DNA of 64,000 bases, taken from positions 2,790,001 to 2,854,000 of the forward strand of contig NZ_JACCFL010000001.1 of NCBI RefSeq assembly GCF_013410375.1, given 5' to 3'. Every line of letters starts with the position of its first letter. Position 1 is the first letter of the stretch. The notes beneath the pieces are model-generated. The model worked only from the letters and a program-made list of their open reading frames with translations, made no database searches and had not been told where the DNA came from. Position numbers and translations under genes: made by a program. Shown in pieces: positions 18,391 through 35,759 of the stretch. This DNA is from Leifsonia shinshuensis (lineage in GTDB: Bacteria > Actinomycetota > Actinomycetes > Actinomycetales > Microbacteriaceae).

Positions 18391-18419
18391 ATCTCAGAAC
18401 TCCCCGGAGGCAAGAACTC

Positions 18420-18860: not shown

Positions 18861-18865
18861 CGGGC

Positions 18866-19000: not shown

Positions 19001-19007
19001 TCACGCT

Positions 19008-19340: not shown

Positions 19341-19363
19341 GAGCCTCGACGAAGGAGCCCCCG

Positions 19364-20351: not shown

Positions 20352-20436
20352 CTTGCGCTAAATGGGCCGAGCCAACCGAGCGGAGCTCGTAACGCGTCGC
20401 TCGGGTGCAACCGCCACCGGCGTGTAGCCTCAAACT

Positions 20437-21335: not shown

Positions 21336-22580
21336 TTGGCCGTTCAGTTCACCGACCACCACACAGCTACCGTCAGCACAGACCTCGCCGGCCTGCTTCG
21401 TCCCCAGCTGGACGTCACCGGCCGCGCGGAACAGGGCCCTCGCCCTGCCCTGCTCCGGGCGCTCTGCGCTGGCCTGTCGGCCTCCCACTCCACGACTGCG
21501 ATCCGCCGGGCTATCGCACTCGTCGGCTCGCCGGAGCAGATCGAACTCTCCTCTTCCCGCCCGGCCTGGTCGGCCCTCGTCCGCACGGCCAAGGCGAGGG
21601 TGGAGGACCAGTCATCGGATGCCGGCCGAGACCGCAACCGATTGGCCACAGCCAGGGTCACTGTTGCACGGTGCTCGTCCCCGCTGGCCGGCGGGACGAT
21701 CTCGCCGCGACGGGAGGCGATGTGTCGGCGCGCGTTCGCGGTCATCGGCGTCCAGCTCTGCACGCTCGGGTTCGACAAGGTCGTGGTCTCGTCGGCGTGG
21801 CTTGGCCTGCAACTCGGCCTCACCGAGGACGCAGCAAGGCTGGTCATCCGCAGCCTCGTCAACGACCTCCGCTGGCTCTCCCCCGCCGGCAGGCGTGGAC
21901 GCGCCGGACGATACCGATTCCGCACGCTCGAGACCGAGGATCTCCGCCAGCGCGCGTGGCTTCACTCAGACACCGTGAACGAGCTGGGTGCCGGGACCGC
22001 CGATACAGCGCTCGCGCAGGTTCTCATGGCCGCGGGGCACCCGGCCCTCTCCTACGGCGAGCTCACCACGCAACTGTGGATCGCCTGGCTCCACCAGGCC
22101 GCCGGCGTCCCTGACGACTCAACCCTCGGCGTCAGCATCAAGCCCCGACGATCACAGTTGCGCCGCTCCCCCGTCACCGGCGGCGGCCTCGACCTCCTCG
22201 ACCAGCTCGACGAGCAGGCGGCACGGGACTCGGCGTTTGCTGCCCGCGACGCCGCCGAAGCTGCGTTCCGCCAGCGCGCTGTGGAGACTGCGGCTCGCCT
22301 CGCCGCGCATCGTGCCGCCAGCGCGGAACGCTACCGTCTCGTGAAAGCCGCTCGCGCCGCGGTCCGTGCCGTCATCGACACGACCGGGCTGCCGCCCGCG
22401 GACCGGGAGGACGCGCGGAGATGGATGGGTTCACTCACCGCCGCGGTTCGCGAGCACCCGTGGACCGAACAGCTGGCTGCTGAGCTGCGGACGACGCTGA
22501 CCAAGAGGGGATGGTCGGAGGCGATGGTCGACGCGGCCATTCAGCATCTCGAACGGGTCGTCGGCTCGGCGGCAGCGTAA
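21336..22580 (+). CDS. Putative DNA-binding protein with winged-helix-like segment (414 aa)
   Basis: The start is the TTG at 21336, placed five bases after a perfect AGGAGG. The frame stays open upstream but has no ribosome site there. The N-terminal part is helical. A segment at about residues 145-200 (VVSSAWLGLQLGLTEDAARL, then RSLVNDLRWLSP and a basic hairpin) looks like a winged helix. The C-terminal third is an Ala/Arg-rich coiled coil ending in a domain with TLTKRGWSEAMVDAAIQHLE. That last domain is repeated in the following gene at 22681. The family is not recognised. A replication, partition or regulatory role in the island is only a guess. Confidence 0.6.
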   Translation: MAVQFTDHHTATVSTDLAGLLRPQLDVTGRAEQGPRPALLRALCAGLSASHSTTAIRRAIALVGSPEQIELSSSRPAWSALVRTAKARVEDQSSDAGRDRNRLATARVTVARCSSPLAGGTISPRREAMCRRAFAVIGVQLCTLGFDKVVVSSAWLGLQLGLTEDAARLVIRSLVNDLRWLSPAGRRGRAGRYRFRTLETEDLRQRAWLHSDTVNELGAGTADTALAQVLMAAGHPALSYGELTTQLWIAWLHQAAGVPDDSTLGVSIKPRRSQLRRSPVTGGGLDLLDQLDEQAARDSAFAARDAAEAAFRQRAVETAARLAAHRAASAERYRLVKAARAAVRAVIDTTGLPPADREDARRWMGSLTAAVREHPWTEQLAAELRTTLTKRGWSEAMVDAAIQHLERVVGSAAA

Positions 22581-22680
22581 CGGTAAGGGGCGGGGCGCTA
22601 CCGTTCCGGCCCGCACCGCATCCGTCTCGGCCACCGTCGCACTGATACCGACCCGGGAGACGGCACGCTGGGCAGCTCGG

Positions 22681-22992
22681 ATGCGCGCCGCGCTGGAGGA
22701 AACGAACCGGAAACGGCTCGCCGCGGTTCGGGAGCAGCGGGCGGCACGTATCGACCGGGCTCGGCGCGCACGCGAAGAGGCGCGGCCCGTGGTCGCGGCG
22801 CTGCTGAAGCGGGTCGGTGACTTGCCGTCTGCGGTGGAGCGTGATGCGGGTGCGCGATGGGTGCAGGCGGCGCGAGCGCATCTCCGTGAACATCTGCCGG
22901 GTGTCTGGCCGCTGCTCGTCCGGAAGATGGCTCAGGCGGGGTGGACGGATGCGATGATCGAGACGGCAGCGGACCTCATCGTTCCGGCATAG
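22681..22992 (+). CDS. Paralogous copy of the C-terminal domain of the preceding gene (103 aa)
   Basis: The product aligns with the last 100 residues of the protein encoded at 21336-22580: a basic coiled coil, then a helical domain ending KMAQAGWTDAMIETAADLIV against TKRGWSEAMVDAAIQHLERV. The frame is open back into the preceding gene without a good start, so it may be the tail of a partly deleted second copy rather than an independent gene. No ribosome site is evident before the ATG at 22681. Confidence 0.55.
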   Translation: MRAALEETNRKRLAAVREQRAARIDRARRAREEARPVVAALLKRVGDLPSAVERDAGARWVQAARAHLREHLPGVWPLLVRKMAQAGWTDAMIETAADLIVPA

Positions 22993-23157
22993 CCTCGGTC
23001 ATGAATGCACTCGAGGCGGGGTTGCCGCTCGGGGATAGCCCAGGCTGCTGGCGCGCCGGATACGAATACACAGAGCAGCCGTAGTGCCGATGATTTGCGC
23101 TCCCCCCGTTCGCAGGATTGCGAGACAGGGAAGGCCACGAGGGCTAGAGCGGCTGGT

Positions 23158-24108
23158 TTAGAACCACGATACGATCCGGCCGAGGAGTCCTCGTGAGCGG
23201 TCCGGACGAGCCTCAGCTTCCGTCCGTTTGAGTTCGTCAGCACGAGACTTGAATTCCGCCGCGCGCTCTCGGTAAACGTTGGCGGCGAGTTGGGCTCTGA
23301 AGCCGAATGCTGCCACAACAATTGTTAGCGCACCGGCCGGGATTAGGGCGAGGGGTTGGCTGACCAGCGATGCCAGCTCAGCGCCGAGGACGACGGAGCT
23401 CAGCAGCAAGATCCATGCTGCAGACAGCTCACGGGTTCGCGCTTTCGCGATTGCGAGCCGCTCGTAGCTTGTCGCCGACGCACTCGTCGTAAGGCTCGCT
23501 GGCGCGACGAGGTCATAAGTTCGCAGCCCCGTCAGACCCGTGCTGATCGACCGAGAAGTTCGCTCGTCGAAGCCATCGAAATATGGCTTCGCTCGTAGCG
23601 ATTTACGGATCCTTCCGAGCCCCACGATCGCGCCCACCCAAGTCGGCAAAGTCGTAATGGAGAGTCCAATGAACCACCATCCGTAGGTAACAGCTGGCGT
23701 GTTCCCGCCTACCAGTGCCGAGAGTACGAGGAACGCCGCAAACCAGCTGACTGTCCACAGCCCGAGCCACCAACACGTCCGCGCGGATAGCAACACGTGG
23801 TTGAACGACTCTGTGGTTGAGTCATCAGAACTCACCCGTAGCGACAGCAATGTCTGCGTGAAGAGCAGACAGCTAGCAGTCCCTCCCGCTGCGAGGAGAA
23901 TCACTGCCACGTTGAACGGCGTATGAAATCCCTCGTTCAGGTCGGTCAAGGTCTTTCGAATGTCACCGGGTGTGAACGCCACCGCGTAAATCACTGGCAC
24001 GGTCACTGCTACGGCAGCCGCCTGAGTGACAACCATTACCCAAATGACCGGAGTCAATTGGCTGGAAGTGAGGGCGACGGTGACACCGCCGCGGGTCGAA
24101 ATGGCCAC
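23158..24108 (-). CDS. Membrane protein with C-terminal coiled coil (316 aa)
   Basis: Four strong membrane segments occur in the first half, at about residues 18-45, 66-90, 110-135 and 142-165. A soluble stretch and a two-helix hairpin follow at about 235-275 (AAWILLLSSVVLGAELASLV). The protein ends in a charged coiled coil with basic residues (AAEFKSRADELKRTEAEARP). No family is recognised and there are no neighbours on the same strand nearby. Confidence 0.65.
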   Translation of the reverse strand: MAISTRGGVTVALTSSQLTPVIWVMVVTQAAAVAVTVPVIYAVAFTPGDIRKTLTDLNEGFHTPFNVAVILLAAGGTASCLLFTQTLLSLRVSSDDSTTESFNHVLLSARTCWWLGLWTVSWFAAFLVLSALVGGNTPAVTYGWWFIGLSITTLPTWVGAIVGLGRIRKSLRAKPYFDGFDERTSRSISTGLTGLRTYDLVAPASLTTSASATSYERLAIAKARTRELSAAWILLLSSVVLGAELASLVSQPLALIPAGALTIVVAAFGFRAQLAANVYRERAAEFKSRADELKRTEAEARPDRSRGLLGRIVSWF

Positions 24109-24648
24109 GCGACATGCTAATGGCGGATGCCTCCCGCGATGCCGTCAAGACACGCGGCCCAGCGGGATCGCACATCAGCCTTGTGGTATCAACGTGCACT
24201 AGCGGGCCGGCCATTGCCGTGACGGGACGGCGGCGACATGTCGCGGTCCGCCTCTGGGCCGGCGCCGCGTCAAGCGGCGGTCTCGTCGCGGGGTCACCGC
24301 GAGGACGGAGTAGCGATATCCGGCGAGACAGCGCAGGACAACACGTGGGACATGTCGTGACAGCCCGGCGGGACAGGCGACTGTCTCAACGATCCCGTCC
24401 GATGGGACAGTCCGGGTGACACCGACGGGACGACCGGCGAGGCAGTGGCGTCACGAACGCGGGTCGCAGTCGTCCCGTTACGTGGGACAGGGAGCGTGTC
24501 GCGGGCGTCCCGCTGCGGGGCGATGGGAGCGCGTCGTCAGCGTCCCGCGACGGATTGTTGTCTCCGTCACATCGGCACGCTGCACGCGTTTGCGGCTCGT
24601 TCGCGCGATGTTTACGGTCCGGTTCGATGACCTCTGAAGCATCGGGGC
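24109..24648. other. Gene-free stretch rich in GGGAC/GTCCC motifs
   Basis: No gene is seen. Between 24222 and 24546 the pentamer GGGAC or its complement occurs about nine times, several as TGGGACA or CGGGACA. Frames in this region are Arg-rich and unsupported. The stretch lies between the start of the membrane gene at 24108 and a small plus-strand gene at 24649, so it probably includes both promoters. Confidence 0.45.
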
Positions 24649-24864
24649 GTGGTCGATGGTTTCGAGTATGTGACTGTGCAGATAGGGTCGTCGCCCGGTA
24701 GACCGCACTCGGACGCGCTCACGGTCGGGATCAACAACGTGTCGCAGCACGGATGGCGGCTCATCGCGCCTCCATCGCTGTTCCATAAAGGGATTGGGAC
24801 AGAGCCAAGCATCTACATGGCGACATTCGAGCGGCCAAAAGCGTGGGTCTCAGATGCCCAATGA
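24649..24864 (+). CDS. DUF4177-like small protein (71 aa)
   Basis: The pattern FEYVTVQIG near the N-terminus, then GINNVSQHGWRLIAPPSLFH and a closing strand (SIYMATFER), fits the DUF4177 fold: a strand, the Leu/Asn-x-x-x-x-Gly-Trp turn, and further strands. The function of that family is unknown. The start is a GTG at 24649 with a poor ribosome site. Its end overlaps the start of the next gene by 11 bases, suggesting coupling. Confidence 0.55.
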   Translation: MVDGFEYVTVQIGSSPGRPHSDALTVGINNVSQHGWRLIAPPSLFHKGIGTEPSIYMATFERPKAWVSDAQ

Positions 24865-25438
24865 CTTGTACCCGGAACGGCCGTGGGAAAACCGGCCCGC
24901 ATCGCCGGGCCTGCCACCCAAGGCGCCGCTGGCTCCACAGAGGAAGCGGCACACCGGCATCTGGGTGACCTTCGCTGTCGCGGCAGTCTTGATGGTCGTA
25001 CTGGTTGTTGCTTTCGGTCGCGCTAAGCCGGCCATTGACGCTGGGCCGCAAACCATTGCCGCAGCAGATTCAATCTCGGCTGAGTGCGAAGCCGCTGCTG
25101 CCAAGGCCGACGCAGTGCTAACGCAGCTCTACGCGGCCGGTGGTCCCGACGACAAGCTGAACGACGCCGCGCTCAGCGTAAAGACCCCGGAGCAGCAGGC
25201 CGAATACGATGCTGCGCGCAAGGCAGTCGAGGACGCGGACGCCGCGGCTGTATTGCCGACGTTCGACTCGTGCAAGACCGCTTCCGAATGGCTCGGTGCA
25301 GCGAAGAAGCATCTCGCGCTTGCGCAGGTGACTAGCCCCGACGCGGTCACCGATCTCACGATTGCGTCGCTGTGCGGTTTTCCCGGCGCATCCGCGAAGC
25401 CGGCCTGCGTCGATGCTGCCGCGCTTGGGGTGACATGA
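24854..25438 (+). CDS. Single-pass membrane protein with exported helical domain (194 aa)
   Basis: A Pro-rich cytoplasmic N-terminus of about 35 residues (MPNDLYPERPWENRPASPGL) precedes one membrane helix at about residues 38-58 (WVTFAVAAVLMVVLVVAFGR). An exported Ala-rich helical domain with four Cys follows. The ATG at 24854 overlaps the end of the DUF4177-like gene. No family is recognised. Confidence 0.65.
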   Translation: MPNDLYPERPWENRPASPGLPPKAPLAPQRKRHTGIWVTFAVAAVLMVVLVVAFGRAKPAIDAGPQTIAAADSISAECEAAAAKADAVLTQLYAAGGPDDKLNDAALSVKTPEQQAEYDAARKAVEDADAAAVLPTFDSCKTASEWLGAAKKHLALAQVTSPDAVTDLTIASLCGFPGASAKPACVDAAALGVT

Positions 25439-25542
25439 GCTCGCAGGACTGCCACTGTCTCTTGGAGGGACGGCGTGGAATTCTCGCTGCACACGCTGTG
25501 CGGTAGGCGACGGTGATGTCGTTTCAGCAGTTCGGCAACTGC

Positions 25543-25810
25543 TCAGCAGTACGGCAACTGGTCGACCTGACCTTGGAGCCCGTTCAGCTCAATGAGGTCG
25601 GTGCCGGCTGCGGCGTGGTCGTTTGACGCAGCGTTAGTCGCTTGCAGCAGCAGGGCCTTTGCAGCCGCGAGCTTGTCTGATGCGACGCTTGCGGTGAAGT
25701 GACCAGCACCGGGGTTGTTGAGCGCGCCGAGGGCGTTGGTCAGCGCCGGGAGCACGCTGCCGAGGCTGTTCGCGGTGTCCGACAGGTTGTTCCAGGGCTG
25801 ACTGCTCCGC
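25543..25810 (-). pseudogene. Remnant of a helical secreted protein, 5' end missing
   Basis: The reading frame encodes about 85 residues of sensible sequence (NSLGSVLPALTNALGALNNP at the start and DLIELNGLQGQVDQLPYC at the end), but upstream it runs into an in-frame TGA near 25823 with no start codon. The usable sequence begins around QPWNNLSDTANSLGS. It looks like the C-terminal piece of a gene whose 5' part was lost. A start at 25755 would give a 70-aa product. Confidence 0.45.
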
Positions 25811-25825
25811 GGATCTCAGACCCGA

Positions 25826-25868
25826 AGCCGCTTGCGGCCGTATCGTCATGATGCGGCCGCAAGCGGCT
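25826..25868 (-). terminator. Strong inverted repeat, terminator-like
   Basis: A perfect 15-bp inverted repeat has arms AGCCGCTTGCGGCCG (25826-25840) and CGGCCGCAAGCGGCT (25854-25868) with a 13-base loop. It lies 27 bases beyond the stop of the DUF2510 gene at 25896 and probably ends that transcript. There is no T-tract. Confidence 0.6.
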
Positions 25869-25895
25869 GTTCACCCACGCGCAGGCGAGCCTCTT

Positions 25896-26507
25896 CTAGG
25901 CGACGCGGCCTATGAAGCCAGCGATAATTCCGAGAACCAGGCCGATCCAGAACGGCGCGAACGTGAAAAGTATCCCGAGCGTCAGCCCTGCAGCTGCAAC
26001 ACCACCGTTCCCGCGAGTTCTGTACCGGGCGAGACCGATCGCTGAGAAAACGATCCCCGCGATCGCCAGCCCCGGCGCGATGACAACGCCGGCGAGCGAC
26101 ACGTATGCGCTCCAGTCTTGACCGGGGATATGCGTAGCAACGTCCAACATGATGACGGTGACGATCGAGACCATCACAGCGAGGAGCGACAGTCCCCGGC
26201 CAACGAATGCGTGACTGTTACGGGGCGAGGCCGCGGATTGGCGGCGCGGGTACTCGGCTTCGACTGCTGCGCGTCGAGACGCAAACGGGACGTAAGCGAC
26301 TTCTTCATGCAGCGGAGCGGCCGTGTTCTCGTAAGGCAACGGCTCCGGAGCGATAGCAGAGGGCGCCGGCGACATCTGCAGGGCCGGCGAAGTTGTTCGC
26401 ACGTGCTCGGTCCAAGCGGAACCGTTCCACCAACGGTGCGAGCCGTCGGCCCGGTTCGGGTCCGGGTCTTCGTACCAGCCAGCAGGCGGCAGGACAGCAT
26501 CGGTCAC
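25896..26507 (-). CDS. DUF2510 membrane protein (about 203 aa)
   Basis: The N-terminal DUF2510 motif (LPPAGWYEDPDPNRADGSHR then WWNGSAWTEH) is followed by a Pro/Ala linker and three hydrophobic segments in the last 100 residues, ending with IGLVLGIIAGFIGRVA. A DUF4190-like pair of helices with SAIGLARYRTRG between them is visible. The GTG at 26507 is chosen because it directly precedes the domain. A start at 26537 would add ten residues. Confidence 0.7.
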   Translation of the reverse strand: MTDAVLPPAGWYEDPDPNRADGSHRWWNGSAWTEHVRTTSPALQMSPAPSAIAPEPLPYENTAAPLHEEVAYVPFASRRAAVEAEYPRRQSAASPRNSHAFVGRGLSLLAVMVSIVTVIMLDVATHIPGQDWSAYVSLAGVVIAPGLAIAGIVFSAIGLARYRTRGNGGVAAAGLTLGILFTFAPFWIGLVLGIIAGFIGRVA

Positions 26508-26643
26508 TGGACTCCCCCATTCGAGCGCTCGGACCAAGCTCTCGGGCAGAGTGGCGGCGCGGTCGTTACAAGCTACAGATCAATCGCGTTGAAAGGCGCG
26601 CCCCAGAACGGGTGATCTCGGTCACGAAACGTGAGGGCTAGCG

Positions 26644-26823
26644 CTACTCGCCGCGGTACAGCTCGCGCACTGGTCCGTTGATCTCTGCGTGGTGCTTCCG
26701 GAGTGCAGACAGGACTGCCCCACGGATGATCGCCCACCAGATCAGCACCCAAATGATGATGCCAAGTAGTGAAGCCGCGATTGTGCCGATGATCATGAGG
26801 ACCGGAGTGTTGGGCGAGACCAT
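26644..26823 (-). CDS. Small single-pass membrane protein (59 aa)
   Basis: The ATG at 26823 opens a 59-codon frame with an N-terminal VSPNTP stretch, one long hydrophobic helix at about residues 8-34 (MIIGTIAASLLGIIIWVLIW), a basic LRKHH turn and an acidic end. Membrane hydrophobicity, positive-inside charge and typical codon use support a real small protein. It is upstream of the DUF2510 membrane gene on the same strand, 137 bases away. Confidence 0.6.
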   Translation of the reverse strand: MVSPNTPVLMIIGTIAASLLGIIIWVLIWWAIIRGAVLSALRKHHAEINGPVRELYRGE

Positions 26824-26959
26824 TCCGTCAGGCTATCGGCGTGCCTGAGACCGAGACCCAGCCTACGGGGCTGTGCGTGACCCCAGTTCGGGCCGGCGGT
26901 GCTCGAGGAACGGCACCCGTCAGCACGCTGTGTCCCCAGCGTATGCGACGCTTTTCAGC

Positions 26960-27835
26960 ATGATCCGTTTGTCACCAGGCGCTTCCGTCGAGTCAGCGAA
27001 AGAAGCGCTCACCACTGCCGCCCGCGACGCAGGCAACGTCATCGGCGCCGGCGGCACCGGCGTTGACCGCTTCAACGGCTACTTGGACTGGGCCGTCACA
27101 CAGGAGCGCAGGCTTGCAAACGCGTACAGTGGCGCCGCGATCGACGACCTTCTCAGGACTCGGCGGTACTGGGCAATTCAGACGCTCTCCCCCGCCGACT
27201 ACGGCTCTTCTCTCGGGCGTTTCATCGAACTCGAGTTGACCGACCGGATCCGAGAGTTCGAAGCTGAGGTAACGAAGCTCAACGAGGCCGCAGCACTATG
27301 GCAGGAGCATCCCAACGGTTCCCTGCTGAACTGCGTCGTGCTCGACACCAACATGATCATGGGTCACGCAACCGGCCTGGCCAGCCTCGACTGGACGCGG
27401 ATGATTGACCGGCGGCCACATGAGCCGATAGGTCTCGCGACCCTTTCTGTTGTCATCGACGAGCTTGATTCGCTCAAAACGGCGTCAGGGAACATGACGA
27501 ACGTTGCCGGCGAGTCGTACCCGAGACGGAGTCTTGCGCAGCGAGCCCTGAACCACCTCAATAAGACCTTCCCCGACAAGCATCGACGGACACAGCTTGA
27601 ATACACTCCTGCCGACGCCGGACCGATCGTTCCCAGGCTGTATCAGGTCCTCGTGCTCGATGACCTTGATCACACGCGCCTGCCAACCGCCGATGCAGAG
27701 ATCCTGGACCGAGCCCTGACCCTCGAGCCCTTCACCCAAAGCGTGACGGTGGTCAGTTACGACACCAACCTCATCTTCACTGCGCGAAGCCTTGGACTAG
27801 AAGCGAAGCTACTCAACCACGACGAAGCGTCTTAG
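26960..27835 (+). CDS. PIN-domain protein, probable RNase (291 aa)
   Basis: An N-terminal helical domain of about 120 residues precedes a PIN domain from about residue 127 (LNCVVLDTNMIMGHATG, then VVIDELDSLK, ADAEILDRAL and SYDTNLIFTARSLGLEAKLL). The Asp/Glu pattern of the metal site (DTN, DELD, DAEILD, YDTN) is present. PIN domains are usually Mg-dependent RNases. No antitoxin gene is next to it, so a toxin role is not supported. The ATG at 26960 is chosen because residues upstream of it in the frame look non-coding. Confidence 0.75.
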   Translation: MIRLSPGASVESAKEALTTAARDAGNVIGAGGTGVDRFNGYLDWAVTQERRLANAYSGAAIDDLLRTRRYWAIQTLSPADYGSSLGRFIELELTDRIREFEAEVTKLNEAAALWQEHPNGSLLNCVVLDTNMIMGHATGLASLDWTRMIDRRPHEPIGLATLSVVIDELDSLKTASGNMTNVAGESYPRRSLAQRALNHLNKTFPDKHRRTQLEYTPADAGPIVPRLYQVLVLDDLDHTRLPTADAEILDRALTLEPFTQSVTVVSYDTNLIFTARSLGLEAKLLNHDEAS

Positions 27836-27859
27836 CACCGGCGCGAAGGCCACGCGCAA

Positions 27860-28237
27860 TTAGTCGATATCGCCGGGAAACGCTTCCCGATAACGATCCT
27901 CGTTCGTGACGCAGAAAACCCTGACCGTCCAATCGCGGACGTATCCTGTCCAGACCCGGAAGCCTTCGGCTTCACCCGCGGCTGGCGGCGGGTCAAGTTC
28001 GAGCAGCCCACCCCACTGGTCGCATAGCTCGCTCCTGCCAGGGGCGGCCGCTCCTTCCGGGTGCTCTCCAGTCAGGATTGGCTCGAACTCGAGGTCGACC
28101 CGCCACGACAACGGTTCAAGGCCGTGGGCTGCACCGTGCGCGTTCAGTTCTTTGGCGATGCCGAGCTCGATCAGTTGATGCACGAAGACTTCGGTCGCCG
28201 CGGTCAGGATGTGATCGTACCGATACGATCCGGTCAT
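27860..28237 (-). CDS. Hypothetical protein, paralogue of the 20437-20787 gene (125 aa)
   Basis: The segments QLIELGIAKELNAHGAAHGL, PLSWRVDLEF, AAAPGRSELCDQWGGLLELD and VRVFCVTNEDRYREAFPGDI each match a corresponding segment of the gene at 20437-20787 in the same order, so the two are paralogues. No known family is recognised. The ATG start at 28237 overlaps, on the opposite strand, the ATG of the gene at 28236. The 3' end faces the PIN-domain gene. Confidence 0.7.
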   Translation of the reverse strand: MTGSYRYDHILTAATEVFVHQLIELGIAKELNAHGAAHGLEPLSWRVDLEFEPILTGEHPEGAAAPGRSELCDQWGGLLELDPPPAAGEAEGFRVWTGYVRDWTVRVFCVTNEDRYREAFPGDID

Positions 28238-28676
28238 GGAGATCCGAAAAGGCGCAGTCCCCCTTCGAACGGTCACCCCTCGCGAGAACGACGCTGGCGA
28301 GAACCTGGACGGCACGAGCCTGATCCCGTTGCTGTACGCGACGAGGACGGCTAAGGCCAACCCGGAGGGACAGCTTCTCCGGTGCGCTGCGTGCGGGTCC
28401 GATGTGGTGTCGCCGACGAATGTCGAGACCTACGTCAGTGAGTACGACGAGCTTCAGCCTGGCACACGCATGGACCTCGTCAACGGTTCAACCGAATCCG
28501 TCACGGGAAACGAAGCGCTACGGACCGACTACCGGCCGCGCGGCAACACGGTGGGTGTCTTCTTCCGCTGCGAGATGGGGCACAGATTCGTGCTCGAGCT
28601 CGCCCGTCACAAAGGGCAAACGATGGCCGCGACCTACTCCTGGATCGACGGCGACGAGTCGTGGTGGAACGAATGA
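28236..28676 (+). CDS. Hypothetical zinc-ribbon-like protein (146 aa)
   Basis: A Cys-x-x-Cys (LRCAACGSDVVSPTNVETY) at about residue 50 and a second pair FFRCEMGHRF at about residue 108 suggest a zinc ribbon. The C-terminus is Trp-rich (WIDGDESWWNE). The ATG at 28236 overlaps the opposite-strand ATG of the gene at 27860-28237. It ends just before the repeat array at 28721. The function is not known. Confidence 0.6.
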   Translation: MEIRKGAVPLRTVTPRENDAGENLDGTSLIPLLYATRTAKANPEGQLLRCAACGSDVVSPTNVETYVSEYDELQPGTRMDLVNGSTESVTGNEALRTDYRPRGNTVGVFFRCEMGHRFVLELARHKGQTMAATYSWIDGDESWWNE

Positions 28677-28720
28677 TCGTGGCCTCGACCGCCGGCGTGC
28701 CCTCATAAGTCCGCTTGCAG

Positions 28721-29640
28721 CGGCGCGTGTGGGTGACGCGAGAGGCTGGCTCTCGTACATTTGGTGGCGGCCGCACGCGTATCTAGTGACGCGAGAGGCT
28801 GGCTCTCGTACATTGGGTGACGCCCCCGCGGCCATCCGCTGCCGCGCCCGAGCGTTCTCGTACCTTTGGTGGCGGGCACCCAGCGTGTGTATCTGGTGAC
28901 GCCAGCCCCTTCGTAAATTCGGTGGCGGCGCGGGGCCTCTCGTACTTTCGGTGGCGCCTCCGCGGCCATCCGCTGCCGCACGAGCGTTCTCGTACCTTTG
29001 GTGGCGGGTACCGCCGCGTGTATATCTGGTGACGCCGGACCCCTCGAAAATTCGGTGACGCCTCCGCGGTCCTCCGGTGCCACACGAGCGTTCTCGTACC
29101 TTTGGTGGCGGGCACCGCCGCGTGTGTATCTGGTGACGCCAGCCCATTCGTAAATTCGGTGGCGCCTCCGCGCTCATCCGATCCCGCACGAGCATTCTCG
29201 TACCTTTGGTGGCGGCCACCGCGCGCGTGTATCTGGTGACGCCGGAGGGCTCTCATGCATTCGGTGACCGGCCAGGGCCTCTCGTGCTTTCGGTGACGCC
29301 CCCGCGGCCATCCGGTGCCGCACGAGCGTTCTCGTACCTTTGGTGGCGGGCACCGCCGCGTGTGTATCTGGTGACGCCGGAGGGCTCTCGTACTTTCGGT
29401 GACGCCCCCGCGGCCATCCGCTGCCGCACGAGCGTTCTCGTACCTTTGGTGGCGGGCACCGCCGCGTGTGTATCTGGTGACGCCGGAGGGCTCTCGTACT
29501 TTCGGTGACGCCCCCGCGGCCATCCGCTGCCGCACGAGCGTTCTCGTACCTTTGGTGGCGGGCACCGCCGCGTGTGTATCTGGTGACGCCGGACTACTCG
29601 CACATTCAGTGACGCCCCCGCTCCGACGTGCATCCACTGA
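28721..29640. repeat. Array of about 28 degenerate 20-bp motifs in 104-134-bp higher-order units
   Basis: The recurring motif is close to TCTCGTACCTTTGGTGGCG, in three alternating forms: CTCGTACCTTTGGTGGCG, GTGTATCTGGTGACGCC and CTCGTACTTTCGGTGACGCC. I count about 28 instances, 30-45 bp apart. Three in order make a larger unit whose TTCTCGTACC element starts at 28855, 28987, 29091, 29195, 29329, 29435 and 29541, so the last units are 106 bp apart and almost identical. The spacers are also repeated, so this is not a CRISPR. It lies between the 3' ends of two convergent genes. Long frames here (up to 284 codons) are products of the periodic sequence and are not called. Confidence 0.9.
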
Positions 29641-29652
29641 TGCCCGCGCGCC

Positions 29653-29973
29653 CTACCAGTCCCTGGGCCCGGCATCCTCCGAGAACGGCCTCGCCCGTTG
29701 TCCGTCGAGGTAGTCCGAAAGCCCGTTGATCGACCCCGGCGTAGCCAGTTGTGCCGGTTTCGTCAGCGGGTGCGGTGCCGAAACCCGATTCGCGGCGACG
29801 CGCCGGCGAATCCGCCGTCCGTCGCGATGCCAGCGGGCGTCGGCGCGAAGGCGGAGCTCCCAGCGCACGAGGAACCGGAGGACTTGGACAGCGCCGACGG
29901 ATGAGAAGAGCGCGAATATCGCGAAGCCGGCCCAATAGGCGGTCGGGTTGGTGGCGGCCAGGTGCTCGAGCAT
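29653..29973 (-). CDS. Small membrane protein (106 aa)
   Basis: The ATG at 29973 starts MLEHLAATNPTAYWAGFAIF, whose hydrophobic stretch runs to about residue 36 as a single membrane helix. A very basic segment follows (WHRDGRRIRRRVAANR), then a soluble tail. It ends 13 bases beyond the repeat array. No family is recognised. Confidence 0.6.
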   Translation of the reverse strand: MLEHLAATNPTAYWAGFAIFALFSSVGAVQVLRFLVRWELRLRADARWHRDGRRIRRRVAANRVSAPHPLTKPAQLATPGSINGLSDYLDGQRARPFSEDAGPRDW

Positions 29974-30058
29974 CGCTGTCAGGCTAGTGAGCGGACTTAG
30001 ACGGCCGCGAGGTCCCGTTCTGGGGGCAGCCGTAACAGCGATGTTCCCGCAACCTACC

Positions 30059-30679
30059 TCAAACGTCTCCCCCTGTATCTCGCTCCGGCTGATGCTGACT
30101 AAAAGCCAGAACCTCGTCGACCGTGTCCTCACTCAGGAGTCGCGCGAGATCTTCTGTCGGAACTTCGGGAAGCCGCCTCATGAACTCGTCTCGAATCGCC
30201 CGCCGGGCGAGCGCCCTGCTTTCAAGCTCCGACTTCTGGTACGCGGCCGCGGCCCGGTTGCTGGCGCGAGTTGTTGTCCAATCCCGGATGATTTCCAGGA
30301 TACGAACGAGGAAGGGGAAGTTCACGCTGAGATCGATCTTGAGCGGGTTCTCGTAGACGACACTCACCGCCTGCGCGCGTGGGACGCCCTGCTCCAAAAG
30401 GATCGCTTGCAGTCTGCGTTCGCGTGCAGCCCGAAAAGATGGGGGAGGGATGACGGCCCTGATCGAGAGGGCTTCAGCCACCACTTCGAAGCTCCCGCCC
30501 TGCAACTCTTCGACTGTCTCTCGATCCAGAATTCCCGCCTGCTCGCGGTATGCAAGGTTCTGCGCGTCAACCGCCAACAAGATGATGCTATTCAGCTCGT
30601 TGACCCGTTCCGCAATGACGCTGAAATCCGCGTCGGGACCAAGGTCCCAACTCAAAGTGAGCCGCACTGGTTCCGCCAT
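30059..30679 (-). CDS. Hypothetical protein (206 aa)
   Basis: The N-terminal half is beta/helix mixed (SWDLGPDADFSVIAERVNEL), the middle has a conserved-looking NPLKIDLSVNFPFLVRILEI segment, and the C-terminal half is a charged helix. No membrane segment or known domain is visible. The ATG at 30679 is at the end of the frame and the next upstream gene is 365 bases away. Confidence 0.65.
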   Translation of the reverse strand: MAEPVRLTLSWDLGPDADFSVIAERVNELNSIILLAVDAQNLAYREQAGILDRETVEELQGGSFEVVAEALSIRAVIPPPSFRAARERRLQAILLEQGVPRAQAVSVVYENPLKIDLSVNFPFLVRILEIIRDWTTTRASNRAAAAYQKSELESRALARRAIRDEFMRRLPEVPTEDLARLLSEDTVDEVLAFSQHQPERDTGGDV

Positions 30680-31043
30680 GCGGCGACTCTAGCGAGCGCA
30701 CGCGGAACGCACCAGGATAGCCAAGCTGGCACGCGTCACCGCGCCGAACCCTCGAGCTCCCCCAACCGCGCCCTCTTCCACTCCGCGTGCCGGCGGATGG
30801 TCGCGCAAGATCCCCGCTCCACACGCCCGCCTCCTGCTTCTGCACCAGCAACCACTACGCCGCCCTAGCAACCGCCTCGCCGAACGCTCGGTGTCAGACC
30901 GTCGCGATACGAGTTCGGCGATCGCGCCGTCAGTAAGAAGTTCGGGGTGGGTCGTGGCGAGCCTACCGTTGGCCGGCGACATGAGACGGTGTCGCCATTT
31001 GCCGACGCAACGCTACCCGCTAGGGGAAAAGACCTAGAAGATC
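30680..31043. other. Gap with no supported gene
   Basis: A minus-strand frame (30689-30982) begins with a plausible 30-residue stretch (MSPANGRLATTHPELLTDGA) and then becomes Arg/Cys-rich, so it may be a decayed gene. I see no ribosome site or domain and do not call it. Confidence 0.4.
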
Positions 31044-31667
31044 TCAGCCCTCGGAAGTGGTCTCGGCTGCGCATGCTCGTGCGGCTAGGTACTTCGTTCT
31101 CGTGAACAAGAACACCAATACCAGCACCGCCACGACGAGCAGACTCACGCCGACCGTAATCCAGGCACAAGCCAAGGCCGCCTCAGCCGACGACGCGTCG
31201 CCACTGGCGCGAGCAGCCGCCTGGGCCGCGTCGGCCTGCGCGCGGGTCACATCATCCTTCGCCGAGTTCAGGTTGCCATACCCGCTCTCTACAGCTTGGT
31301 TTGCCGCCTCGAACCTCTTGCGTTCGGTTAGTAGAGCAGCTGGCGGATTCGACCCTGCTGTTGCTTGCTGGATCAGCATCAGGCCCGCTGCGCCGTATTT
31401 GTCGGTGTAGACCTGGAGCGCGGCCAACGCGGCCTGGTACTGCGCCTGCATGGCCGCCTCGGAGCCTTTCGCGTCCGTGACATGCCGGCGGGCGCTGATT
31501 GCTTCACTTTTTGAGGACGCGGCGTTACCGGCGGCGCTGCCCGCTGAGATGAACACCGCCACTGAGAGAACAGCTCCGACAATGGTCGCCACGATCAACA
31601 CGACACCCGCAGCGAACATGAGCGTCCGCGTGCTGCGAATATGCGCCTCGGCTTGCTGGGTCGACAT
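31044..31667 (-). CDS. Two-helix membrane protein with coiled coil between (207 aa)
   Basis: The first membrane helix is at about residues 17-42 (LMFAAGVVLIVATIVGAVLS) and the second at about 168-190 (AWITVGVSLLVVAVLVLVFL). Between them lies an Ala/Gln-rich coiled coil (VTRAQADAAQAAARASGDAS). No function is known. The same general layout is found in many small actinobacterial envelope proteins. Confidence 0.65.
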   Translation of the reverse strand: MSTQQAEAHIRSTRTLMFAAGVVLIVATIVGAVLSVAVFISAGSAAGNAASSKSEAISARRHVTDAKGSEAAMQAQYQAALAALQVYTDKYGAAGLMLIQQATAGSNPPAALLTERKRFEAANQAVESGYGNLNSAKDDVTRAQADAAQAAARASGDASSAEAALACAWITVGVSLLVVAVLVLVFLFTRTKYLAARACAAETTSEG

Positions 31668-31742
31668 GGCATGAGGGTACCGATGGCGCGGTCGTCACGC
31701 ATACCCCAAAACGGAGTGGACAACTAATCTGCGATTCCGATC

Positions 31743-32641
31743 TTGAGAGGGCTAGGGACAACCAGAAAACGCCCGAACTTGTATCGAACCGCATCGGCGG
31801 CGGTCCGGAAGCGAACCGGTGGGGTCGCGGTTAGAGGACGGGCCGTGGACGATGCGCGGGCGTGGCTACTCCGTGGTGCGGCGCCGCGAGACGCGGCGCC
31901 TTGGTGGGAGGACGCGCTGCTGCGCCCGGAGGGCCGCCATTGGACTGATTTCTTTGCTCCCACGCCGAGTCCCCAGACCGTGCAGCGACACGAATCATCG
32001 CTTTCCGCGCACATCCTGCCGGCGTTCGGCGACCTTTCGGTGTCCGAGCTCTCCAACCCCCGACTGCGAAAGTGGATTAAAGCGTTGGCGAAAGACCACC
32101 TCGCTGAAGCGCGAAATTCGCGGGTCGTTCTTCGCCACGTGCTCTCAAAAGGCGCCGACGAAGGAGTTTGCACGCCAAGCCTCTTCGACTTCGACGGCAT
32201 CAGGCTCGCGGTGCCCAAGAAGAAGGCTCGAGCAATCACCCGAGATGAGCTAGAGCGCCTGCGCAACCTGGTTGCGGATGACCGGGCACGTCCACGAAGT
32301 GGCCCGAAGACTCGGAAAGCGCACGACGACGTCGTCGACGCAATCGACCTCGCACTCGCCACTAGCCTGCGCATCTCGGAGGTTCTCGGCATCAGCTCGC
32401 AGGACCTCGACTTCGACGGTGCAGAGCCCACACTGAATGTCACTGCGAAGGTCGAATACGTGCGCGGCTCCGGTTATGGACTCGGGCCCGTTAAGACGGC
32501 GACGACCGAGCGGGGCATCGTCCTTCCGCGGTTCGCCGCCGAAATCGTCCAAGCACGAATCGAGACCTACGGGCCTGGACTCATCTTCCGGAGTTCACGA
32601 GCGGCCGGCGGCCCTATCTCGCAGAACAACCTGCGCAGGCT
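31743..32641 (+). pseudogene. Tyrosine integrase, 5' part (interrupted by IS)
   Basis: The frame has the N-terminal core-binding region (SPQTVQRHESSLSAHILPAF, then the helical pair) and the first part of the catalytic domain, with catalytic Arg at about residue 210 (LRISEVLG) and Lys at about 251 (GPVKTATTERG). It reads to NNLRRL at 32641 and then enters the IS element. The rest is at 35240-35491. Joining the parts across one AGGCT copy restores one frame (NNLRRLLREIVKGTDLEW). The TTG at 31743 is an uncertain start. Confidence 0.85.
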
Positions 32642-32801
32642 GAATATTCGCTTCTCTGAGCGCCACGAGTATTGGGGTTGAGCGCGACTTGCTCGTGGAC
32701 GCGATCGCGTTGTTGAGCGCCACCGGATATTGGGGTTCGGCGCCGTCTTTCTAGGCTCCTTCTGCCGCGTGGCTGATCACACGGCAGAAGGAGTAGTTCG
32801 G

Positions 32802-34367
32802 ATGGTACGCAGGATCAAGGCGAAGCTGGTGCTGAGGCTTCGCGCGGAGGGGCTCACGGGTCGGCAGATCGCGGCGCAGGGCATGTCCAGGCACTCGGTG
32901 ACGGCGGTGCTCGACGCCGCTGACCGGGAGGGCATCGGCTGGGACGACATCGTCGAGCTCGAGGAAGCGGACGTGTATGCGCGGCTGTTCCCAGGGCGTG
33001 GTGATTACGAGAGTGTTCACGCGCAGCCGGACTGGGACCGGGTGCATCGGGAGCTCGCCCGGGTCGGGGTGACGTTGAAGCTGCTGCATGGTGAGTACGT
33101 CGACGCTTGCCGGAGCAAGGGGGAGACGGCGATGGGGTACGACCGATTCTGCAAGTCGTATCAGCGTCACGTGCTGGTGATCGGCGCGTCGTCGCGGGTT
33201 GGACACAAGGCGGGGCAGACGGTCGAGGTCGACTGGTCCGGGAAGACGATGCAGCTGACCGATCCGGTCACCGGGCAGCAGACGAGGGTGTACTTGTTCG
33301 TCGCGACGCTGCCGTTCTCGAGGTATTCGTTCGTCGAGCCGGCCCTGGATATGAAGCAGGACACCTGGTTGCGCGCGAACGCGGCGATGTTCGACTGGTT
33401 CGGGGGCAGCGTCCCGCGGATCGTCCCTGACAACCTGAAGACGGGAGTGATCAAGCACCCCGCTGAGGGCGAGGTCGTGCTCAACGACGCGTATCGGGAG
33501 CTCGCCGCGCACTACTCCGCGGCGGTGCTGCCGGGCCGGCTCGCGAAGCCGAAAGACAAGGCGAGCGTCGAGGGCACCGTCGGGAACGTCGCCACCTCGG
33601 TGATCGCGACGCTGCGCAACAGGGCTTTCGCGACGCTGTCGGAACTGCGCGTCGCGATCCATGAGCGGGTCACCGCTTACAACGCCGAGCCGTTCCAGAA
33701 GCGCGCCGGATCGAGGCTTTCCGTGTTCGAGGCGGAGGAGAAGCCGCTGCTGAGGCCGCTGCCGGCGGTTCCGTTCGAGATCTCCCAGTGGCGCTATGGA
33801 CGCAAGGTCCAGAAGAACGGGCACGTGGTGTTCGAGCGGAACTTCTACTCCGTCCCCTACGAGCACATCGGCCGGTCCGTCGACCTGCGGATCACGGACA
33901 GCACCCTGGAGGTGTTCGCCGGGGACCAGCGGCTCACCAGTCACCTCCTCGCCCCCGCGGGGGTGATCAACGAGTACCGGACGCATGACAGCGACCTGCC
34001 CGACGGGCCCCGCTACCAGCAGATGGACCCTCAACGGGCGCGGGAATGGGCGGCGAGGATCGGGGAGAACACCACCACGATCGTGAACCGCATCTTCGAG
34101 TCCGTGCCCGTCGATGAGCAGGGCCTGGACGCTGCGCTGGCAGTGCTGCGGATGACGAGACGCTACTCCGCGGCACGGGTCGAGGCGGCGGCCGGCATCG
34201 CGCTGCAGTCGCGGGTGAGGTCGCCGCGGTATGCGCATCTGCGACCGATCCTGGAGTCGAACCAGGAGCAGACCGGCAGGCGACAGCCAAGGTTCGAACC
34301 GAGTGCTTGGGAGGAACCGGCCGGGTATGTCCGCGGCGCCGACTACTACGCGGGAGGCACCCGATGA
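32802..34367 (+). CDS. istA: IS21-family transposase IstA (521 aa)
   Basis: An N-terminal HTH (EGLTGRQIAAQGMSRHSVTA) precedes a DDE integrase core with Asp144 (VEVDWSGK), Asp210 (IVPDNLKTGV) and Glu257 (DKASVEGTVG), and a C-terminal domain. Length is typical of IstA. The ATG at 32802 follows AGAAGGAG at good spacing. It overlaps istB by four bases (ATGA). IstA performs the DNA cleavage and joining and IstB assists. Confidence 0.95.
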   Translation: MVRRIKAKLVLRLRAEGLTGRQIAAQGMSRHSVTAVLDAADREGIGWDDIVELEEADVYARLFPGRGDYESVHAQPDWDRVHRELARVGVTLKLLHGEYVDACRSKGETAMGYDRFCKSYQRHVLVIGASSRVGHKAGQTVEVDWSGKTMQLTDPVTGQQTRVYLFVATLPFSRYSFVEPALDMKQDTWLRANAAMFDWFGGSVPRIVPDNLKTGVIKHPAEGEVVLNDAYRELAAHYSAAVLPGRLAKPKDKASVEGTVGNVATSVIATLRNRAFATLSELRVAIHERVTAYNAEPFQKRAGSRLSVFEAEEKPLLRPLPAVPFEISQWRYGRKVQKNGHVVFERNFYSVPYEHIGRSVDLRITDSTLEVFAGDQRLTSHLLAPAGVINEYRTHDSDLPDGPRYQQMDPQRAREWAARIGENTTTIVNRIFESVPVDEQGLDAALAVLRMTRRYSAARVEAAAGIALQSRVRSPRYAHLRPILESNQEQTGRRQPRFEPSAWEEPAGYVRGADYYAGGTR

Positions 34368-35113
34368 GCCGGCTCGATGCGGAGACGAAGCGGAAGCTGC
34401 GGGAGATGGGCGTCCCCGCCCTGATCGACGCGTTCGACGTCCAGGACGACACCCTCACCATGGGGTTGGTGTTCGAAGAGCGCATCAAGCTCGCCGTCGA
34501 CGACGCCCACGCCGCGTTCACCCACTCGAAGGTCGAGGGGCTGATCCGGCGGGCGGGGCTGCGATACCCGAACGCGGACCTGCGCCGCGTCGATCTGCTC
34601 GAACAGCGCGGCCTGGACCGGGGTGTGATCGCGCAGCTCGGGACCTGTCAGTTCATCACCCGGCACATGAACGTCGTGTTCCAAGGCTTCACCGGCTCCG
34701 GGAAGTCCTACCTCGGGTCCGCGTTGGCGAAACAGGCGTGTCAGCACCGCTACCGGGCGCACTACATCCGCATGCCCGACCTCGAAGAGACCTGGGCCGC
34801 CGCGAAAGACCGCCCCGCGGGCAGGGAGAAGTGGCTGCGGAAGTACTCCACGTTCACGCTGCTGGTGATCGACGAGTGGTTGCTCGACCCGCCCACCGAC
34901 GACGTCCGGTCCATGCTGCTCGAGCTCCTCGAGAGGCGTTACGACGCGACCTCGACGGTGTTCTGCACCCAATACGCGAAGAAGGACTGGCACCAGCGCC
35001 TCGGCGGCGGGGTCCATGCCGACGCGATCATGGACCGCATCGTCCACAACACCCTCTGGATCGAGACCGGCGACGTCAACATGCGCGAGCAGACCGCCGC
35101 CGCGGCCGGCTGA
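34364..35113 (+). CDS. istB: IS21-family helper ATPase IstB (249 aa)
   Basis: Walker A is GFTGSGKS at residues 108-115 and Walker B LLVIDEWLL at about 166-174. The AAA+ ATPase fold is full length for IstB. The start at 34364 overlaps the istA stop, so the two are translationally coupled. IstB is the target-selection and regulator ATPase of IS21-type transposition. Confidence 0.95.
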   Translation: MSRLDAETKRKLREMGVPALIDAFDVQDDTLTMGLVFEERIKLAVDDAHAAFTHSKVEGLIRRAGLRYPNADLRRVDLLEQRGLDRGVIAQLGTCQFITRHMNVVFQGFTGSGKSYLGSALAKQACQHRYRAHYIRMPDLEETWAAAKDRPAGREKWLRKYSTFTLLVIDEWLLDPPTDDVRSMLLELLERRYDATSTVFCTQYAKKDWHQRLGGGVHADAIMDRIVHNTLWIETGDVNMREQTAAAAG

Positions 35114-35239
35114 AACCGGGCCGGTGAGCGTCGCGCCCGCGGGGGTGGCGCTCACCGGCAATACCAGTGGCCCCGAGAGTGAATATCGACTGGCGCTCAA
35201 CCGCAATAATCAGTGGCGCTCACGACTCCAAATACTCAC

Positions 35240-35491
35240 AGGCTTCTACGCGAAATCGTGAAGGGTACCGACCTGGAATGGGTGACACCTCACGCAGCCC
35301 GGAAGACGGTGCTCACGGCAGTGAACCACCAGCTCGGTTCCAAGGTTGCAGCTGCGGTAGCGGGCCACGCTGACGACGCGCTCATAATCAGCACCTACGG
35401 TGAGAAGGCGAGCATGGCCCCGAACGTGACCAGCATCACCGAGGCAATGTTCGCGCGGAATCGACCGGTCGCCGACGAACAAATCGGCTGA
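35240..35491 (+). pseudogene. Tyrosine integrase, 3' part
   Basis: This carries the remaining catalytic residues of the integrase begun at 31743: His and Arg of PHAARKT (codons at 35291 and 35300), His of AGHADD (35366) and the nucleophile Tyr of STYGEKAS (35396). It ends TGA at 35489-35491. The protein is therefore split by the IS and inactive unless the IS excises precisely. Confidence 0.9.
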
Positions 35492-35510
35492 GAAGCGCCA
35501 GCCTCGACAA

Positions 35511-35540
35511 GCGCCCCCGCATTGCGGGGGCGCTTTCGTT
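35511..35540 (+). terminator. Rho-independent terminator of the integrase
   Basis: A perfect stem GCGCCCCCGC (35511-35520), loop ATT, GCGGGGGCGC (35524-35533) is followed by TTTCGTTTT. It lies 20 bases after the integrase stop. Confidence 0.85.
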
Positions 35541-35648
35541 TTCGGCACCGCGCATTTTCGTGCCCGGGACGTTTATTCGCCGTTTAATCGGTGAGAACGA
35601 GTGAATTCGCATGAAGCCAGATGAGAGCCAAGCTCCCAAAACAGCAGA

Positions 35649-35672
35649 AAACCCCGGTAATCACCGGGGTTT
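35649..35672 (-). terminator. Terminator-like hairpin downstream of tRNA-Gln
   Basis: The inverted repeat AAACCCCGGT (35649-35658), loop AATC, ACCGGGGTTT (35663-35672) read on the minus strand ends in TTTTCTGC. It is 16 bases beyond the 3' end of the tRNA on the same strand. Confidence 0.75.
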
Positions 35673-35687
35673 CGACTGGATTTCTTG

Positions 35688-35759
35688 CTGGGGTACCTGG
35701 ACTCGAACCAAGAACAACTGAACCAGAATCAGCCGTGTTGCCAATTACACCATACCCCA
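35688..35759 (-). tRNA. tRNA-Gln (anticodon CTG)
   Basis: The minus-strand sequence folds as a cloverleaf. The acceptor stem is TGGGGTA (5') with TACCCCA (3') and a G discriminator. The D arm contains the GTAATTGGCAAC loop. The anticodon arm is CTGA-TTCTGGT-TCAG with anticodon CTG (reads CAG, Gln). The T arm has the GGTTCGAGTCC loop. The CCA end is not encoded. The 3' end points toward the split integrase, making it the likely attachment site. Confidence 0.95.

What the first reader, a model, noticed from the sequence alone, without database searches (positions are those of the whole stretch)
28721..29640. Higher-order array of about 28 twenty-bp motifs between convergent genes
A roughly 0.9-kb region consists of a degenerate motif (about CTCGTAC-YTTYGGTGRCG) repeated about every 35 bp, arranged in three alternating variants that build units of 104-134 bp, the last three of which are almost identical at 106-bp spacing. 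The motif resembles an iteron set more than a coding repeat. The gradient from divergent left copies to identical right copies suggests growth by unequal recombination at the right end. It could be a protein-binding cluster (origin, partition or silencing site), a repeated RNA, or a satellite. It does not match any element I know, and it is the best candidate in the window for an undescribed feature.
Basis: partly seen in the sequence, partly recalled or inferred. Interest (0 to 1): 0.75.

Follow-up and report, generated by a model that had tools for sequence, protein, structure and literature searches.

The report
Orphan plasmid iteron array on chromosome
A 0.9-kb repeat array in a chromosomal island is built from repeats like those that two kinds of plasmid use to start replication, but no replication gene or origin was found with it, so it may soak up the replication proteins of incoming plasmids, or may be a relic.

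Summary
The array is real. I placed 34 sites of about 18 bp at 28,721-29,614, all on the + strand, most of them 22 or 28 bp apart, in a four-site unit (28+28+28+22 = 106 bp). Two units are identical, 106/106.

The motif matches iterons beside the RepA_C (PF04796) initiator gene of Microbacteriaceae plasmids. A matrix trained only on the Glaciihabitans sp. INWT7 plasmid sites puts its 20 best hits in the 64-kb window inside the array. Two plasmid types are interleaved: 18 'a' sites lie 1-3 mismatches of 17 from a Glaciihabitans copy, and 8 'b' sites 1-3 from a G034-plasmid copy; the other 8 sites are weak.

The own genome shows no RepA_C match. The array lacks the AT-rich stretch seen in 10 of 10 plasmid arrays and the DnaA-box-like site seen in 9 of 10. 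It lies in a tRNA-Gln island whose integrase is split by an IS21-type element.

Best reading: orphan Rep-binding sites without an origin, acting as a Rep-titrating incompatibility decoy, or surviving as a relic. Identity is fairly secure; function is inferred. A second, a-type-only array without a RepA match exists in another genus (G133).

The parts
28721..29614 (+). Iteron array: 34 hand-placed sites (8 a, 9 b, 10 a2, 7 c) of about 18 bp, all on the + strand, spacing 22-31 bp; 26 are recognisable plasmid-type sites
   Evidence: plasmid-trained matrices pick it out of the 64-kb window
28857..28874 (+). Example of an a site, CTCGTACCTTTGGTGGCG (2 of 17 mismatches to a Glaciihabitans-plasmid copy)
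29359..29376 (+). Example of a b site, CGTGTGTATCTGGTGACG (1 of 17 mismatches to a G034-plasmid copy)
29321..29532 (+). Two identical 106-bp four-site units (recent duplication)
28236..28676 (+). ORF (146 aa) just left of the array; no relative found except itself
29653..30132 (-). ORF (159 aa) converging on the array from the right; no Pfam match
31743..32681 (+). Tyrosine integrase, N-terminal part, cut off by the IS21-type element
32730..35113 (+). IS21-type element: transposase (Mu-transpos_C_2; rve below cut-off) and IstB
35213..35491 (+). Probable C-terminal remainder of the integrase beyond the IS21-type element
   Evidence: weak Pfam match, 18.6 bits against a 27.1 cut-off
35687..35759 (-). 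tRNA-Gln (ctg) at the right edge of the low-GC island
1..35686 (.). Low-GC island (0.61-0.67 per 2.5 kb; flanks 0.66-0.77); by comparison with G026 the inserted stretch may begin up to 4.8 kb left of the window

Best explanation
The array is a cluster of binding sites (iterons) of the kind used by RepA_C-family plasmid initiators, carried by a chromosomal island without an initiator gene or origin. Shown by sequence: two plasmid iteron types are interleaved, the origin parts are missing, and no RepA_C gene was detected in the genome. Inferred: when a plasmid whose RepA recognises these sites enters the cell, the array binds or pairs that RepA and lowers or blocks plasmid replication, so it acts as an incompatibility decoy. 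My odds: sites are RepA_C-type iterons, about 0.8; they act as a titrating decoy today rather than being inert, about 0.45.
For: Motif identity: the Glaciihabitans-plasmid matrix has 20 of its top 20 window hits in the array (1.5% of the window); the G034, Cnuibacter and Micrococcus matrices have 8 of 10 each. All 18 a/a2 sites lie 1-3 mismatches of 17 from a Glaciihabitans copy (3 at one, 14 at two, 1 at three) and 5 or more from the G034 and Cnuibacter copies; 8 of 9 b sites lie 1-3 from a G034 copy (5 at one); none of 1000 random 17-mers came nearer than 4 to any of six plasmid sets. Clusters in genomes: 5 or more b-type matches only in G000, G034 and G076 of 284; clear a-type arrays of 5 or more sites only in G000, G125 and G133 of 398. 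G034, G076 and G125 are among the 12 of 398 genomes with a RepA_C match, with the array beside that gene. Iteron similarity rises with RepA similarity over 15 replicons (Mantel rho 0.35, p 0.0016). No origin: lowest 50-bp GC 0.58 against 0.36-0.50 in 10 plasmid-type arrays, and no DnaA-box-like site (up to 1 mismatch) against 9 of 10. Site cores differ less than flanks, 0.176 against 0.311, column permutation p 0.00025. Precedent: fragments of plasmid RA3 with the putative iteron r3, given in trans, reduced co-existence to under 1% (PMC9455977 section 2.2).
Against: No Rep binding or plasmid exclusion has been shown. No RepA_C match in 28 genomes of the genus, own included, so no current target is known there. 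The G259 matrix has 0 of its top 10 hits in the array and seven other plasmid matrices 0-1 of their top 40, so only some RepA types match. The two types are not sharply apart: the 8 b sites are 3-4 mismatches from a Glaciihabitans copy and also score 8.3-17.0 with that matrix, and the Cnuibacter matrix scores 2 sites in the Glaciihabitans array, the Glaciihabitans matrix 1 in the Cnuibacter and 2 in the Micrococcus region; one RepA may read both. Class c is near chance distance and varies more in the core than in the flank (0.328 against 0.252). G133 has an a-type array without a RepA_C match, so not every array is beside repA. RA3 tests used high-copy clones; this is one chromosomal copy. A plasmid ParB could be the binder. 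The island looks partly decayed.
Confidence: 0.45

Rival explanations
1. Inert relic: the island once was, or captured, a RepA_C replicon; rep, par and the origin were lost and the array remained, growing by unequal crossing-over without function.
For: Integrase split by an IS21-type element; tandem arrays duplicate without selection (general knowledge); the identical units lie near one end; no current target plasmid seen in the genus sample.
Against: No RepA remnant by tblastn and no rep or par family in the 30 hand-chosen window ORFs scanned. The plasmid arrays compared are mainly of one type, this one holds both at regular spacing. The a-site core is nearly invariant (0.015) while its flank varies (0.209).
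Confidence: 0.35
2. Replication site of a satellite: the island excises and a helper plasmid's RepA replicates it from this array.
For: Salmonella genomic island 1 (SGI1) has four 17-bp iterons just downstream of its rep gene, and SGI1 variants encode a RepA_C-domain or an alternative initiator (PMC7433901 abstract and oriV section).
Against: No AT-rich stretch or DnaA-box-like site, all sites in one orientation, no rep found; the integrase is broken. SGI1 encodes its own rep.
Confidence: 0.08
3. Centromere-like or regulatory cluster: the sites bind a plasmid ParB or a chromosomal protein rather than RepA, for partition or silencing.
For: The plasmid arrays lie near parA as well as repA; SGI1 carries parS-like repeats that bind the helper's ParB (PMC10954446 abstract).
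Against: RepA_C plasmids of other lineages have such repeats beside repA, three of them with no parA in the listed annotation of the stretch (the plasmid gene tables are incomplete). The motif has no second cluster in the own genome.
Confidence: 0.1
4. Structured or repeated RNA, or plain satellite.
For: Tandem higher-order structure.
Against: No Rfam match there, folding no better than shuffles, no promoter- or terminator-like site in a weak scan, specific match to plasmid iterons.
Confidence: 0.02

Closest known systems
Iteron arrays beside the RepA_C (PF04796) gene of Microbacteriaceae plasmids (Glaciihabitans sp. INWT7 NZ_CP043654.1; G034; Cnuibacter NZ_CP020716.1)
   Same: About 18-bp motif, many copies tens of bp apart, noncoding region; in 5 of 7 annotated plasmid loci the next gene converges on it too
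   Different: No repA found, no AT-rich part, no DnaA-box-like site, one orientation only, two iteron types interleaved, 106-bp higher-order unit
Salmonella genomic island 1 parS-like repeats and oriV
   Same: A chromosomal island that carries a plasmid's protein-binding sites (parS-like), or an iteron origin
   Different: There two parS-like copies, shown by experiment, and the island has its own rep; here many iteron-like sites and no rep found
RA3 (IncU) DR1 repeats
   Same: Repeated putative initiator-binding sites that exclude the replicon when supplied in trans
   Different: DR1 belongs to a working plasmid; repeat units of 38 and 60 bp; tested on high-copy vectors
Chromosomal array of G133 (another genus)
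   Same: a-type sites with no RepA_C match in that genome
   Different: About 7 copies, a-type only, in two opposed groups around a more AT-rich part (minimum 50-bp GC 0.46)

Membership tests
RepA_C plasmid iteron array | Many copies of a 17-20 bp site | tested here: met
RepA_C plasmid iteron array | Site sequence matches iterons beside a RepA_C gene | tested here: met
   Glaciihabitans, G034, Cnuibacter and Micrococcus matrices (8-10 of top 10), Curtobacterium 5 of 10; G259 0 of 10 and seven others 0-1 of 40
RepA_C plasmid iteron array | repA gene next to the array | tested here: not met
   No match in the own genome nor in the window; the same alignment found 12 of 398 family genomes
RepA_C plasmid iteron array | One iteron type per array | tested here: not met
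   18 a-type and 8 b-type sites; caveat: b sites also score moderately with the a-type matrix, and a few cross-hits exist in plasmid arrays
Iteron origin of replication (oriV) | AT-rich unwinding stretch and DnaA box | tested here: not met
   (sequence criteria only)
Iteron origin of replication (oriV) | Binding of Rep and start of replication | not testable with these tools
   needs protein and plasmid tests
Incompatibility (Rep-titrating) site | Excludes or destabilises the matching plasmid in trans | not testable with these tools
   needs a plasmid establishment test
SGI1-type helper-exploiting island | Own rep gene with downstream iteron oriV | tested here: not met
   No RepA_C match and no rep family in the window ORFs scanned
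SGI1-type helper-exploiting island | parS-like sites of a helper plasmid | not tested
   no parS of these plasmids is known to me

The most novel reading that the evidence does not exclude
A noncoding anti-plasmid immunity array: a chromosomal island that has collected and interleaved the iterons of two plasmid incompatibility types, stripped of origin parts, and amplifies them by recombination so that several families of RepA_C plasmids are titrated and excluded; the G133 array would be a second, single-type example.
Probability: 0.22. Interest if true: 0.8.

Novelty: new variant of a known kind. Interest (0 to 1): 0.55.

Why it matters
Plasmid incompatibility is normally a by-product of sharing control sequences. 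A chromosomal, gene-free array that carries two plasmid iteron types without an origin would make incompatibility itself a defence, readable from sequence. It also gives a map of iteron arrays of RepA_C plasmids of Microbacteriaceae, for which I saw no description in the listings of the eight paper searches named in the full report. Even if it is a relic, it would show that iterons outlive their replicons on chromosomes, and it links an unknown repeat to a named initiator family.

Tried and rejected
Blastn hits in four relatives (5 of 60 genomes with a match, own included) are single short matches without an array; rejected as chance. The genome contigs pair pattern gave 19 stretches from many phyla; several show 3-13 copies at up to 2 mismatches, and none of the 19 has a RepA match at 1e-3 in the DNA held. 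I did not pursue them, so they neither support nor exclude wider spread; they are a result against a strict motif-RepA link. The order-wide triple pattern (8 of 396 genomes) shows this motif only in G000, judged by eye; the rest look like low-complexity repeats. In the family-wide triple pattern (20 of 398) I also judged by eye; small arrays in G346, G135 and G015 were not counted, though the three G135 copies (CCGTACTTYYGGTGAGGC) come close to the a site. Plasmid and phage blastn with the array found nothing credible; a Staphylococcus record hit was judged chance. Flank genes gave no plasmid link; the integrase has 2 distant plasmid relatives, the PIN-domain gene 13 Streptomyces plasmid records; island ORFs against 13 loci gave one RHS-type match. 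In one search the pooled matrix was one column out of register for G034 and Cnuibacter, and the reversed control was run on that pooled matrix only; I rely on the single-plasmid matrices. In one search the b set held overlapping duplicates, so its b p-values are not used. In one search the automatic motif of G100 (4 copies) and of the three weakest RepA loci were judged not to be iteron arrays; the count for L088 includes near-palindromic sites found on both strands. The p treats columns as independent and the register was set by hand. No attachment repeat was found. A 17/17 identity to a plasmid copy holds only for a majority consensus of the a2 sites; real sites are 1-3 mismatches away.

Full report
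OBSERVATION. A matrix made from the exact motif finds 18 sites at 28,749-29,615. Including weaker variants I placed 34 site ends by hand from the listing: class a 8, b 9, a2 10, c 7, all on the + strand, spacing 22-31 bp. The higher-order unit is a-b-a2-c = 28+28+28+22 = 106 bp. Units at 29,321 and 29,427 are identical (106/106); the next is 79/106. In the 4,418,190-base genome blastn finds the array nowhere else; of 44 motif matches with up to 3 mismatches 18 lie in it, including all 12 exact ones.

WHAT THE MOTIF IS. A search of 398 genomes of the same family (up to 1 mismatch) gave matches in 27. Apart from the own genome only G125 had a cluster (6 matches; all other genomes 0-2). That place is a 148,839-base replicon, identified by tblastn as Glaciihabitans sp. 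INWT7 plasmid NZ_CP043654.1, family Microbacteriaceae. There 14 sites lie in both orientations with unrelated spacers, directly beside a RepA_C gene, with ParA and a ParB-like gene (below Pfam's cut-off) next to it. I then fetched the RepA regions of eight Microbacteriaceae plasmids including this one (L085-L092): all eight have an iteron array beside repA, 10-25 copies by the automatic count (six of them also). Of the 12 RepA_C matches among 398 family genomes, 8 have an array in the neighbouring 1.5 kb and 4 do not (judged by eye; some of the 8 are plasmids already counted). Of eight RepA_C plasmids from other families and phyla, 6 have at least 5 copies, one 4 and one 3; there they lie upstream of repA in 7 of 8. 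The motif differs by plasmid and its similarity rises with RepA similarity (15 replicons, one Curtobacterium only; rho 0.35, Mantel p 0.0016).

THE MATCH TO THE WINDOW. A matrix from the 14 Glaciihabitans plasmid sites alone, run over both strands of the 64-kb window, puts its top 20 hits, and 26 of its top 30, in the array. The G034, Cnuibacter and Micrococcus matrices put 8 of their top 10 there, Curtobacterium 5 of 10, G259 none of 10; six others (two Frondihabitans, G248, Pseudonocardia, Nocardia, Rhodothermus) none of 40 and Burkholderia 1 of 40. Site by site: the 18 a and a2 sites are 1-3 mismatches of 17 from a Glaciihabitans copy (3, 14 and 1 sites) and at least 5 from the G034 and Cnuibacter copies. 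Of 9 b sites, 8 are 1-3 mismatches from a G034 copy (5, 2 and 1 sites) and 3-4 from a Glaciihabitans copy; one is not recognisable. The 7 c sites are 4-6 away, which is near chance: of 1000 random 17-mers 4 reached four and none came nearer. For comparison, the Glaciihabitans copies are 3-7 from the nearest G034 or Cnuibacter copy. At a score of 8 the Glaciihabitans matrix finds 0 sites in the G034 array, 1 in the Cnuibacter and 2 in the Micrococcus region; the G034 matrix finds 0 and the Cnuibacter matrix 2 in the Glaciihabitans array. So the two types are largely separate on plasmids but interleaved here; the b sites also score 8.3-17.0 with the a-type matrix, and the Micrococcus motif is intermediate, so one RepA reading both cannot be excluded. 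RepA of Glaciihabitans and of G034 are 40% identical; G034 and Cnuibacter, which share the b type, 72%. In a separate search of 284 family genomes for the b site (51 with a match), 5 or more matches occur only in the own genome (7), G034 (13) and G076 (5); G034 and G076 carry RepA_C.

NO REPLICON HERE. RepA_C: no match in the own genome by Pfam model or by the seven-sequence alignment, none in 28 genomes of the genus, own included, no remnant in the window by tblastn (best E 0.52). One search lacked a positive control; one search is the control for the alignment. The array's lowest 50-bp GC is 0.58, against 0.36-0.50 in ten plasmid-type arrays; ordinary 1.3-kb pieces of the island average 0.49 (0.40-0.58). 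No 9-mer is within one mismatch of TTRTCCACA (DnaA box, consensus recalled), against 9 of those 10 arrays, 3 of them with an exact copy. Thirty window ORFs chosen by hand were scanned with Pfam: among them an RHS-repeat protein, a sigma factor, a TetR-type regulator with an MFS transporter, enzymes, a PIN-domain protein, a tyrosine integrase in two pieces and an IS21-type pair, but no rep or par family.

THE ISLAND. GC is 0.61-0.67 per 2.5 kb from about window 1 to the tRNA-Gln at 35,687-35,759, against 0.66-0.77 in the flanks. All 28 genus genomes gave a match to the tRNA/right-flank query, many over the tRNA only. Of five loci that match it nearly whole, G026 has the left core flank (window -4,823 and beyond) about 160 bp from its tRNA-Gln, and G020 has left-flank sequence about 1.3 kb away; the other three show none in the 1.5 kb held. 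So the inserted stretch is roughly 36-40 kb. No attachment repeat was found.

SELECTION. Within site classes the 17-bp core differs less than the flank (mean pairwise difference 0.176 against 0.311, column permutation p 0.00025); class a 0.015 against 0.209, b 0.186 against 0.345, a2 0.176 against 0.440, but class c 0.328 against 0.252. So a, b and a2 look maintained and c does not. Duplication makes copies non-independent, so this is suggestive only.

A SECOND CASE. The triple-site pattern over 398 family genomes (20 with a match) found, besides G000 and G125, an array in G133, on a 3.35-Mb contig of another genus: 7 a-type copies by matrix, in two opposed groups as read in the sequence, with no RepA_C match in that genome or by tblastn in 57 kb.

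HOW IT PROBABLY WORKS. Iteron plasmids are shut off when extra iterons titrate or pair the initiator (general knowledge; RA3 fragments with the r3 repeat reduced co-existence to under 1%, PMC9455977, abstract, passages and section 2.2 read). SGI1 shows that an island can carry a plasmid's binding sites and expel it (parS-like repeats, PMC10954446, abstract and passages), and that RepA_C initiators and iteron origins occur on islands (PMC7433901, abstract and one section). By analogy the array may act as a decoy for incoming RepA_C plasmids. Two iteron types, many sites and no origin fit a decoy better than a simple relic; the broken integrase and the absence of such plasmids in the genus sample fit a relic. 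Not shown: Rep binding, any effect on plasmids, any present partner.

KNOWN OR NEW. Eight paper searches (listings only, except the three papers named) listed no paper whose title or abstract start describes iteron arrays of Microbacteriaceae RepA_C plasmids or chromosomal iteron arrays of two types. The library lacks most subscription journals.

Noticed in passing
window 983-2452: 4.2 perfect copies (100%) of a 354-bp tandem repeat inside a 2013-aa RHS-repeat protein: an in-frame (118-codon) recent amplification.
   Followed up: no
window 37,552-37,651 and 43,950-44,037; L117 (G015) 1487-1779: Near-palindrome ATTCGTGACGAAT, 6 exact copies in the window counting both strands, and 7 copies at 40-bp steps (one step 80) in a congener: a separate repeat family.
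   Followed up: partly
window 32,730-35,113: IS21-type element (transposase and IstB) lies between two pieces of the island's tyrosine integrase.
   Followed up: partly
L138 8243-8620 (G133 chromosome): Second a-type iteron array without a RepA_C match, in two opposed groups.
   Followed up: partly
L139 7202-7290 (G346) and L123 1494-1566 (G135): Three-copy arrays with a GGTGAGG-type end; the G135 copies come close to the a site. Relation to iterons unclear.
   Followed up: no
L066-L084 (genome contigs pair-pattern stretches), for example L067, L071, L074, L080: Short repeat arrays matching the loose pair pattern in other phyla, without a RepA match in the DNA held.
   Followed up: partly
window 14,506-14,617: GCTA-rich tandem repeat (CTAGCTAG runs) near a DUF2510 protein; similar CTAG runs beside RepA loci of G259 and G076.
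   Followed up: no
window 28,236-28,676 and 30,059-30,679: ORFs beside the array whose only match at E 0.001 among 5.8 billion proteins is themselves.
   Followed up: yes
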